Source: Scilla litardierei (Eukaryota > Streptophyta > Magnoliopsida > Asparagales > Asparagaceae). Taken from it: DNA of 64,000 nucleotides. Under the pieces are notes generated by a model. That model did no database searches. It was not told the origin of the DNA and worked only from the letters and a program-made list of their open reading frames with translations. Both the position numbers and the translations under genes were made by a program. The stretch is taken from assembly GCA_030789695.1 (NCBI GenBank), contig CM061139.1:196327641-196391640 (forward strand). Reading direction: 5' to 3'. Positions 40,154 through 64,000 of this stretch are shown one piece after another. Within the stretch, counting starts at the first letter, position 1. Every line of letters begins with the position of its first letter.

Positions 40154-43100
40154 ATGAGTGTGAATCCGGTGCCGTCCTTGAATTCTCATGGGAATCTCGA
40201 CGAGCAGATTGCGCAGCTTATGCAGTGTAAGCCTCTGTCGGAGCAGGAGGTGAGTTCGGATTTTCAATTCTTTTCTCCCTTTTTGGCTTCAGATCGTGGT
40301 TTTGGTGTCGAATTTTGGGCGGTTGCAGTGGACCTTTCGAGGATTGGGCGGTTTGTTGCGGGGAATGGGGGTTCTTTCCTCGATCTGTGAATCGCGTGAG
40401 TTTCGAAAAGCTAGGGTTTCTGTTTTGGGTGAATTTGGTGGGAAGAGGAGTTTTGCTGTTTGTTGCTTGGGAATCTGCGTCGATCTGTCGGAAATTTGCT
40501 CTTTTGGCAGCAAATTATGTAGGATTTTGTAAATCCGTGGGAAATCTTGATAGTGGCATTTCCATTTTTGGAGGATATGTTATTTGGAAGCTGATTGCTT
40601 GGAATCTTTATTTTTACGGTATTTTGAATTATTTTGGGAAAATCCTGACACGGTTCCGTATGTTCTGTAAGTTTATATCAAATTACTGGTTACATAGATG
40701 TGGAGGGCTTGCAGGTGAATATTTGTTTTTTTTTAAACGTACTTACATGGGAGTTTTATTCCACTCTTTCATGTAGTGTTTTTTATATAAACATTGTCCA
40801 CATGAATCTGTGGTGGAGAGTGTAGTGTGAATCTCATATCAAATCCTCACTGTTAATAGCATTTTATATGGATTGCCATATGTTAGATGGTTCTTTAGTT
40901 TTGATAGTTTGAGCCACTAATGTAATCAAAATTATTTATTTTTTCTTGTTAATTTTTAAAGCCCTAGATTGGCGGGTTGAGACTACTAAAGATTTGATTT
41001 GGTTTTATTTCATGAAAGACGATGGTTGGGATGATCAACCGTATTTATTATTGTGTTAATTGGCCCAGTATCATTTTTATATTTGTAGACTCTGGGTTCA
41101 AGTTTACCAGAGGCACCTGCTTTTGTTCATGCAGGCATATATATTGCAACATAAAATTCTATCATTGATAGTACTGCCGTTAACTTCTCTGATTTTTATT
41201 CTACCATTCCCTTGTGCAGGTTAGGGTGTTATGTGAGAAAGCAAAAGAGATCTTAATGGATGAAAGCAATGTCCAGGTAACCCTATTTATTTAACATTGT
41301 GTGATTCTTTTATTTTTAGGTCGTTATGTATCTTAAATTTAATTTTTTTTCAGTGTTTAAGATCCTATGCTACTTTGAGACATAACAAATGGAAACCTAG
41401 TGATTGCATTAAAGAAATTCCGATTAGCTTGTGGATTTCTTGATTCATTTGACATCTATTTCTTTAGTGCTCAGCTAGACTTCTCAACCTAAAGGTTTCA
41501 AAATGTTTGTTCATGGCTGGAGTAAATGAGTTTTCTTGTTACAATGCAAGATTCGATTGAGAAAAAAATATGCAACACACCGTATCAGCCTTTATCCCCC
41601 TGGAAATGTTCTTTTTCGTAAAAATGCCACATAACAGTCATGTAGTACATTTTTGCATACACAGAACATTCAAACCAAAAATGTGTTCTGTTCAATGTGG
41701 GTGCAAATATTCACATATACTCGCATAATTTTTATTCGTTTGGTTGTATTCTGCTGTTAGGAATTGTGTAATTTTTGTCTAAGTTCTCTTGTGAATAAAT
41801 TTCACTCATTTGCCCCTTTGCTTGAAATAATGACCATATTGTCCGGTAACATATATTTATATTAAGAACATAACAAATATGTCTGTTTTAAGTCTAATTT
41901 CTCAGTGAAATAGATTTTGTTCCTGCACCTGTTAGAGCGAGAATTGTCCCATCAGCCCTAGTTTAACATGGATTGGAAGTCTGATTATTATAATAACATA
42001 TGAAAATTGGGAACTTATCTAAACGTATCAATGTTCTTAAAAATAAAACATAAATGTATGTCTATGCATGTGTGCTCCTGTACTGGGTTGTATGCAGGCA
42101 GGCATGTACGTGACATGTTAACGTGGGGCCAGAACATGATCAATAGAACATCGATAGCTGTGGTGTCCTGCAAAAAAGTAGGGTGTTTTTAGTTCGAACC
42201 CAGTGTTGTGGGTATTATGTATAAATCAGCTTTTCTTCCATCTACTGTACTGATCATGCCACTCATTATATTTCATGTGAATCCTGCTATCTTTAAAAGG
42301 CAGTGTGGTCGGCGCAAACATCTATCTGTGATAGTTTACTGGGAATGCTAGGACTTGTTGTCATGGGAAAAACCATATCACAAGTTATATGTAGGTTGCA
42401 CTAATTGATGTGTTGATAAGCATTTGTCAATTATCATCTCGTATTCATGCTTACATTAGAATCCTACATTGCCACTTATGTTAAGTTAATTCTTGTGAAT
42501 GTAATTTTGTCTCTTCCTAATTGTATTATTTAATCATAACCTGTTTTGGAATGAACAGTGGAGTATTTTGGGACTGCAAGGGCTGAGTGACCTTCATTCT
42601 TCCGGATGGAAATATATGGGTGTGATGCATCCATTGTTTCAAGTAAATAGTTGCAGTGGGACTGGCCATTGAAGAACTTCCTAAAAAGACCACCTTATAC
42701 TGACTAAAAAGTTGATGTGATTAGGTGGTTGGTTCTTAATCTTAAAGTTTAAGTCCCCCAAAGTTGGATTAAGTCCATTCATAATATTACACCGATTGCG
42801 CATGGTACGAAGTAATTTATAGCCAATTTGTGCTTGGTTTCATTTTAATAATTCTCAACTAATGAAAGAATTTATGCCAATTAAAGTTAACAAGATCTTA
42901 GCTCCAAGTTACATTTTTAATGGTTTATTCTAAGAAATAGAATTTTCCTGTTCTTGCTGATTTTTTCAATGAAAATTTCTATTTATCCTGAAATTTAGTT
43001 ACCTTCCTACATTGCAGCCTGTTAAAAGTCCTGTGACGATCTGCGGTGACATTCATGGACAGTTTCATGATCTTGCAGAACTATTTCGAATTGGTGGAAA

Positions 43101-43389
43101 GGTATCTTCTCTTTTTATCTTTTCCATTTTCTGTGCAGGATGTTCCATGCTTTCACTGCTCTCGATTAGCTATTATCAGTCCGATGGAGTATAGTTTTAT
43201 AGCAGGATGGCAAAGATAACATGTTACTTGATAAATGCCGCAACATTTAAGTTAGTAGATTGACTTATCTTCTTTATTTGTGCAACATTCCTGATGATGT
43301 TTTTTTTCTATTCTTAGTGTCCAGATACGAATTACTTATTTATGGGTGATTACGTAGACCGCGGGTATTATTCCGTCGAAACTGTCACG
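40154..43389 (+). CDS. PP2A: Serine/threonine protein phosphatase 2A catalytic subunit, exons 1-4 only (gene 3' part not in window)
   Basis: Exons 40154-40249, 41220-41276, 43018-43101 and 43318-43389 all have GT-AG borders, are in phase 0 and have no stop. They encode 32+19+28+24 = 103 residues of the usual ~313. Exon 1 gives [19 protein letters not shown], exon 2 [19 protein letters not shown], exon 3 contains the metal-binding motif GDIHG and exon 4 GDYVDRG. The sequence fits plant PP2A-C subfamily II (PP2A-3/4-like) better than subfamily I. The enzyme dephosphorylates Ser/Thr as part of A-B-C heterotrimers in cytosol and nucleus. The next exon should begin LLVALK and carry GNHE. I find no such exon up to 64000, so either intron 4 exceeds 20 kb or the gene is 3'-truncated. 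Confidence 0.9.
40250..41219 (+). other. PP2A intron 1
   Basis: The 970-bp intron starts GTGAGT and ends TTGTGCAG. The open frames across its 5' part (40289-40776) are read-through of a fairly GC-rich early intron and match nothing. Confidence 0.9.
41277..43017 (+). other. PP2A intron 2
   Basis: The 1741-bp intron starts GTAACC and ends ACATTGCAG. It is AT-rich, with no recognised element. Confidence 0.88.
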
Positions 43390-63000: not shown

Positions 63001-64000
63001 TTATAAAAGAGTGTGGTTGGATAATGACCATTTATTTAGAGGATATATTGATGAGTACACCAAGGGTACATCATCAGTCCGGTTAAGGGAGTGGACGAAG
63101 CCTATTTATATCCCTTAAATACTCTCAAGAGACCTAAAGGTCTTCATTATCTTTAATGATGATAGTATATCATCTTAAATTCATTTGAGGAAGTGGGGAG
63201 AGTCAAGGTCCATGTGAATGGAGATGATCTCATTTTCATTTTTCCTTTTTGAATAGGACAATGAAAGTTTCACCCTTTTTGAAGAATCTTCGGGTTCGTC
63301 TGGTTGATGATGTCTTGCATCATCACTCCAAGGTGATATCGATCCAAAGTTGGTCGATTCTGGACACTTCTGGTGTTCCAAAATAATTCCTCTTTTGAAT
63401 TTATGTGGCACTTTTTGAAAAGTCCATTACAATGCTCAAGTTAATTTTGTCCGGTAATAGTTGAACTGTGTTCAAACTGTGAAGGATTACATCTTCACTT
63501 TTACTATTGTGCGGATCATTTTGGGACAAAGCTTCAGGCTTCATTTATTCCTTGAGTCATTAGGGATTTCGTTTTGACGAATATCCTTTTTGAAACTGTA
63601 TAAGTTTCAGAGAGTATATGGCATCCTCATTTTATTTTTAGGGGTATTTCAAGATAGCAAAACATACGCAGTAAAATAAAATGTATTAAAACTACAAGAG
63701 AATAATACTGATGATAAGTCAACAAGTGACATAGTGTGATGTGTGCTCTTGAAAACATACAACAATAATTATGCTCATTTAAGACTTATGTTATGACAGC
63801 AGATAATTTTTGATTTCAAAGTTTATTTGTCCTCGGGGAGTAGCCAAATATACATAAGGTCAACTAGACTTTCGTCGTTTTGACTAGATATGTATGTATT
63901 TTTATAAGTTAATGCACATTCATGTTTGCAAAAACATTATTGCTCTTATCAGAACTTCCGGTCTGATTTTGGCTTGCCATTGCTTACTCCATGTCGAGGT
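59914..64000 (-). mobile_element. Short-LTR copia element (Ale/Retrofit-like), coding-dead, copy 4, cut by the window end
   Basis: It begins with an LTR at 59914-60043 and continues with sequence nearly identical to 33524-37480 of copy 3, including the two 3' non-coding units and the same broken pol fragments. Examples are 60937-61140 against 34413-34616 and 62135-62368 against 35617-35850. The far LTR, primer-binding site and gag part lie beyond 64000. Shared disabling mutations show that it descends from the same defective ancestor as copy 3. Confidence 0.92.

What the first reader, a model, noticed from the sequence alone, without database searches (positions are those of the whole stretch)
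40154..64000. PP2A catalytic subunit gene stops after exon 4; the rest is absent for over 20 kb
Four clean, in-phase exons with consensus splice sites encode residues 1-103 of a subfamily II PP2A catalytic subunit, but I find no exon for the GNHE motif or anything later up to 64000. Either intron 4 has been inflated beyond 20.6 kb by transposons, or the gene was truncated and survives as a fragment. The exons show no decay (no stops, all residues plausible), which favours a giant intron or a very recent truncation.
Basis: partly seen in the sequence, partly recalled or inferred. Interest (0 to 1): 0.75.

Follow-up and report, generated by a model that had tools for sequence, protein, structure and literature searches.

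The report
PP2A gene with transposon-swollen intron
The window holds the first four exons of an ordinary plant protein phosphatase 2A gene; the rest most likely lies beyond the window edge, across a very long intron packed with transposons, which is an ordinary situation in large plant genomes.

Summary
Four in-phase exons (40154-40249, 41220-41276, 43018-43101, 43318-43389) with GT-AG introns encode residues 1-103 of a plant PP2A catalytic subunit, and no later PP2A exon was found on either strand up to 64000. Homologous gene models place a normal splice junction exactly at ETVT|LLVALK. The 20.6 kb after exon 4 is transposon ground: a 1.5-kb short LTR element with a perfect target duplication, gypsy-type fragments, and an LTR element cut by the window edge. 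Repeats seen within the window cover 10,451 of 20,611 bp there, against 0 of 3,661 bp of the gene block 39729-43389. Residues 10-103 match Citrus models letter for letter. That caps unconstrained drift at about 1.4%, while the short LTR element has drifted about 4-5% per LTR, so the exons seem to have stayed under selection long after the interval was invaded. Best reading: an intact gene whose intron 4 exceeds 20.6 kb, cut by the window edge. Very recent truncation is not excluded: nothing beyond 64000 could be read (eight identical genome-search requests did not complete). Ordinary; low interest.

The parts
40154..40249 (+). PP2Ac exon 1, from ATG (residues 1-32)
41220..41276 (+). PP2Ac exon 2 (residues 33-51)
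43018..43101 (+). PP2Ac exon 3 (residues 52-79, holds GDIHG)
43318..43389 (+). PP2Ac exon 4 (residues 80-103, holds GDYVDRG, ends ETVT)
43390..64000 (+). Inferred intron 4, at least 20,611 bp, running off the window; no PP2A exon found in it
   Evidence: that it is an intron of a working gene is inferred
44577..46108 (.). Short LTR (TRIM-like) element, LTRs 44577-44884 and 45797-46108, target duplication ATTTC; a further LTR-like stretch at 44980-45152
52179..55509 (-). Gypsy-type fragments: integrase zinc-binding, RNase H (below Pfam's cut-off), protease, zinc knuckles, in separate ORFs
59098..59819 (.). GC-rich unit flanked by the 8-bp direct repeat CCTCACAT, possibly a hAT-like insertion; terminal inverted repeats not shown
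59914..64000 (.). LTR element cut by the window end; sister copy of the complete element at 33334-39728

Best explanation
This is the 5' third of an intact, ordinary plant PP2A catalytic subunit gene. Its intron 4 has been lengthened beyond 20.6 kb by successive transposon insertions, so exon 5 (predicted [24 protein letters not shown]) and later exons lie past 64000, and past about 66.2 kb if the last LTR element is as long as its sister copy. Shown: the exons, the splice borders, the transposons, and no exon 5 found within the window. Inferred: that exons 5 onward exist downstream on the same strand, and that the long intron is spliced out to give a normal PP2Ac.
For: Exons clean and in phase. 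Homologous models put an intron at exactly this codon: P0125 and P0126 run into other residues beginning with V right after ETVT, as read-through of a GT donor would, and P0082 lacks exactly [24 protein letters not shown], as exon-5 skipping would. Repeats seen within the window cover 10,451 of 20,611 bp downstream against 0 of 3,661 bp for 39729-43389. The short LTR element at 44577-46108 has a perfect 5-bp target duplication and LTR divergence K2P 0.101 (0.082 without CpG). The LTR element from 59914 is 97.7% identical inside, over 3,940 aligned bases, to the one at 33334-39728. Residues 10-103 are identical to Citrus sinensis models in 3 of the 240 PP2A rows held (the capped best); with 209.8 nonsynonymous sites in residues 12-103, no change bounds neutral drift below 1.43% at 95%, and P = 0.00018 for the 4.1% drift of each LTR. 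Long LTR-filled introns are described for Chloranthus and magnoliids, and introns over 20 kb for gymnosperms (passages of PMC8626473 and PMC9364684).
Against: No exon 5 or later exon was seen; no sequence beyond 64000, no RNA evidence and no species name were obtained. The dating argument assumes equal neutral rates in exons and LTRs, and bounds when the exons lost constraint, not whether the downstream part exists. No intron 4 length was measured in relatives.
Confidence: 0.85

Rival explanations
1. The gene was cut very recently by a rearrangement or deletion, and exons 1-4 survive as a non-functional fragment. Its product would keep GDIHG and GDYVDRG but lack GNHE and the later catalytic residues, so it could not be an active phosphatase.
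For: No exon 5 or later found in 20.6 kb; the interval is rich in transposons.
Against: Residues 10-103 are identical to Citrus models, so loss of constraint would have to fall within about 1.4% of neutral divergence, well after the element at 44577-46108 inserted. Frame and splice borders are intact.
Confidence: 0.1
2. A transposon of the Pack-MULE or Helitron type captured the 5' part of a PP2Ac gene and carried it here.
For: Captured gene pieces are common in plant genomes (general knowledge, not tested).
Against: No inverted repeats linking the flanks: comparison of 36001-40153 with 43390-50000 gave 4 matches, each 13 bp with E 0.34, and the self-comparison listed none linking them. Helitron ends were not searched for.
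Confidence: 0.02
3. The assembly is misjoined somewhere after exon 4.
For: Repeat-rich DNA is prone to misjoins; no reads could be examined.
Against: Exon 4 is followed by about 0.9 kb without window repeats, and the element at 44577-46108 keeps an intact target duplication, so there is no sign of a join before 46.1 kb. A join further on is not excluded.
Confidence: 0.03

Closest known systems
Plant PP2A catalytic subunit genes of the AtPP2A-3/AtPP2A-4 kind (subfamily II of He et al. 2004 as cited in PMC6220131)
   Same: Residues 1-103, motifs GDIHG and GDYVDRG, and the exon 4/5 junction after ETVT.
   Different: Only four exons are in the window; wheat genes have 9-11 exons (PMC6220131 passage) and rice pp2a-2 has an 11th exon (PMC8525387 passage).
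Transposon-filled long introns of plant genes (Chloranthus, magnoliids, gymnosperms)
   Same: LTR elements as filler; introns over 20 kb are described (PMC8626473 and PMC9364684, passages only).
   Different: Host species unknown and splicing not tested here.

Membership tests
PP2A catalytic subunit | Metallophosphoesterase domain with GDIHG and GDYVDRG | tested here: met
   PF00149 41.7 bits against a cut-off of 21.5, residues 56-100; motifs present
PP2A catalytic subunit | GNHE, later metal-site histidines and TPDYFL tail (names recalled; residues visible in P0007) | tested here: inconclusive
   Not found in the window on either strand (the GNHE exon), but the gene runs to the window edge
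Plant PP2Ac, AtPP2A-3/4 kind | Closer to AtPP2A-3/4 than to AtPP2A-1/2/5 | tested here: inconclusive
   Hits carry the names PP2A-2, PP2A-3 and PP2A-4 of many plants; no tree was built and AtPP2A-1/2/5 were not compared
TRIM-like short LTR element (44577-46108) | Short LTRs, about 1.5 kb in all, target duplication, no recognised coding domain | tested here: met
   LTRs of 308 and 312 bp, target duplication ATTTC; the longest ORF, 45075-45854, has no Pfam match
hAT-like insertion (59098-59819) | 8-bp target duplication and terminal inverted repeats | tested here: inconclusive
   CCTCACAT at 59090 and 59820, and once more at 18804; inverted ends not shown

The most novel reading that the evidence does not exclude
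The locus makes a stable short transcript ending in intron 4 (read-through adds [10 protein letters not shown] and then a stop, 113 residues), kept by selection as a regulator without catalysis.
Probability: 0.01. Interest if true: 0.6.

Novelty: new member of a known kind. Interest (0 to 1): 0.1.

Why it matters
Little beyond annotation. It shows how a conserved gene can look truncated in a fixed window, and gene predictors with a maximum intron length could split or shorten this PP2Ac. If confirmed, it is one more case of splicing across more than 20 kb of transposons in a plant gene.

Tried and rejected
Searched for exons 5 onward on both strands: none found. Considered a tandem duplication of the 33-60 kb stretch, because 33412-37479 and 59932-64000 are about 97% alike. 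Rejected: the element at 33334-39728 has its own LTRs and target duplication ACTTT, and the copy begins at its LTR at 59914 with a different left flank, so these look like two insertions of one family. Considered capture by a transposon: no flanking inverted repeats; Helitron ends not searched.

Tried to name the species through the PP2A exons and a piece of a copia element; no near-identical row. Best PP2A models: Citrus sinensis, 99 of 103 residues. Copia RT piece: 77% over 98% of the query (P0242) and 84% over 88% (P0244), both without an organism name. Among the 120 listed of 4,693 hits of the 103-residue query, no row equals this fragment. Rfam and tRNA scans of the window found nothing. 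Of 19 selected ORFs scanned with Pfam, five had a match above the curated cut-off or were otherwise transposon-like (52179-52760, 52985-53350 below cut-off, 53869-54330, 55201-55509, 5406-5816); no second host gene was found, but smaller ORFs were not scanned.

In one search the LTR pair of the element at 33334-39728 was misaligned because of a 60-bp duplication; the figures to use are those. Five paper searches; passages of four papers were seen, no paper was read whole. One search, for giant plant introns, listed 3 papers, by their titles on pufferfish and Drosophila.

Full report
Observation. Pfam finds the metallophosphoesterase domain in residues 56-100 (PF00149, 41.7 bits, cut-off 21.5). 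A full-length plant PP2Ac query finds these exons at 41.2-70.1 bits and nothing else above 21.2 bits on either strand of the window. In 43390-64000, six frames, exon 5 (24 residues) tops at 30 of 119 against 32 and 33 in two shuffles. Exon 6 (36 residues) tops at 39 of 201 against 32 and 32. The exon 6 hit, near 53.6 kb on the minus strand, exceeds its shuffles, but lies between gypsy-type Pfam matches and reads like a reverse-transcriptase motif (recalled). Exons 2 and 4, as controls in the same script, reach their full self-scores. Residues after exon 6 were covered only.

The junction. Homologous models show that an intron at exactly this codon is normal. P0125 (Linum tenue) and P0126 (Senna tora) continue with other residues beginning with V right after ETVT, as read-through of a GT donor would give. 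P0082 (Citrus sinensis) lacks exactly [24 protein letters not shown], as skipping of exon 5 would give (which aligned 18 chosen rows of 240). So exon 4 ends at a conserved splice site, not at a break. Published genes have 9 to 11 exons in wheat (passage of PMC6220131) and an 11th exon in rice pp2a-2 (passage of PMC8525387). Full-length rows have about 314 residues, so about two thirds of the coding part should follow.

The interval after exon 4. From 43390 to 44325 no stretch matches elsewhere in the window. At 44577-46108 sits a short LTR element: LTRs of 308 and 312 bp, a perfect 5-bp target duplication (ATTTC), and a 260-residue stop-to-stop ORF without a Pfam match. A further LTR-like stretch lies inside it at 44980-45152. 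Its LTRs differ by K2P 0.101, or 0.082 without CpG positions. Minus-strand gypsy-type fragments (integrase zinc-binding, protease and zinc knuckles above Pfam's cut-offs; RNase H at 25.1 bits, below the cut-off of 29.8) lie between 52.2 and 55.5 kb. Much of 48.36-49.15 and 56.08-59.03 kb matches other places in the window, including a pair of palindromic MITE-like copies about 95% alike. A GC-rich unit is flanked by CCTCACAT at 59090 and 59820, perhaps a hAT-like insertion; the same 8 bases occur once more at 18804. At 59914 begins an LTR element that the window end cuts. Its inside is 97.7% identical, over 3,940 aligned bases, to the complete element at 33334-39728; if equally long it would end near 66,248. 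In all 10,451 of 20,611 bp of this interval match another place in the window or their own reverse complement (blastn, E up to 1e-5, 60 bp or more), against 0 of 3,661 bp for 39729-43389. This is a lower bound on transposon content, since elements with one copy in the window are not counted.

Intact or broken? Residues 10-103 are letter-for-letter those of Citrus sinensis models (P0013, P0082, P0102: 3 of the 240 PP2A rows held, which are the capped best). With 209.8 nonsynonymous sites in residues 12-103, no change means at most 1.43% neutral drift at 95%. The short LTR element has drifted about 4-5% per LTR since it inserted, and under 4.1% drift the chance of no amino-acid change would be 0.00018. 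So the exons were probably still under selection for most of the time since that transposon entered, as expected of an intron of a working gene. The argument assumes equal neutral rates, and it does not show exon 5. A cut within about the last 1.4% of divergence would look the same. A 103-residue fragment would lack GNHE and the later catalytic residues (recalled; visible in full-length rows), so selection on it as a phosphatase is implausible.

Rivals. Recent truncation stays open at about 10%. Transposon capture is unlikely: no inverted repeats flank the block (4 matches of 13 bp, each E 0.34), though Helitron ends were not searched. A misjoin after 46.1 kb cannot be tested here. Intronic polyadenylation would give a 113-residue product. 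Nothing here supports it; AATAAA occurs at 43773, which means little in AT-rich DNA.

Compared with what is known. LTR elements are described as the main contributor to long introns in Chloranthus, with higher expression of long-intron genes, declining only when intron length exceeds 40 kb; long introns are also prevalent in magnoliids (passages of PMC8626473). [quoted passage not shown] The case is a new example of a known kind. I built no tree.

Limits. Nothing beyond 64000, no RNA data and no species name were available. 

Noticed in passing
33334-39728: A complete 6.4-kb LTR element with target duplication ACTTT ends 425 bp before the PP2A start codon. One LTR carries a 60-bp tandem duplication; apart from it the LTRs show 2 mismatches in 116 bp, so the insertion looks young. 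Orientation not established.
   Followed up: partly
15670-23774: A copia-type element with an uninterrupted 1367-residue ORF (18116-22216) and repeats at both ends identical at 526 of 527 bases: very recent. Exact ends and target duplication not resolved.
   Followed up: partly
5406-5816: ORF with a hAT-type transposase RNase-H fold match (PF14372, 38.5 bits, cut-off 27).
   Followed up: no
3438-3855: Tandem array of a 44-bp unit, 9.6 copies, 96% matches, open in two frames.
   Followed up: no
57163-57314 and 58840-58992: Two copies, about 95% alike, of a palindromic MITE-like repeat of about 150 bp.
   Followed up: partly
59090-59827: GC-rich unit flanked by the 8-bp direct repeat CCTCACAT, perhaps a hAT-like insertion; inverted ends not shown.
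   Followed up: partly
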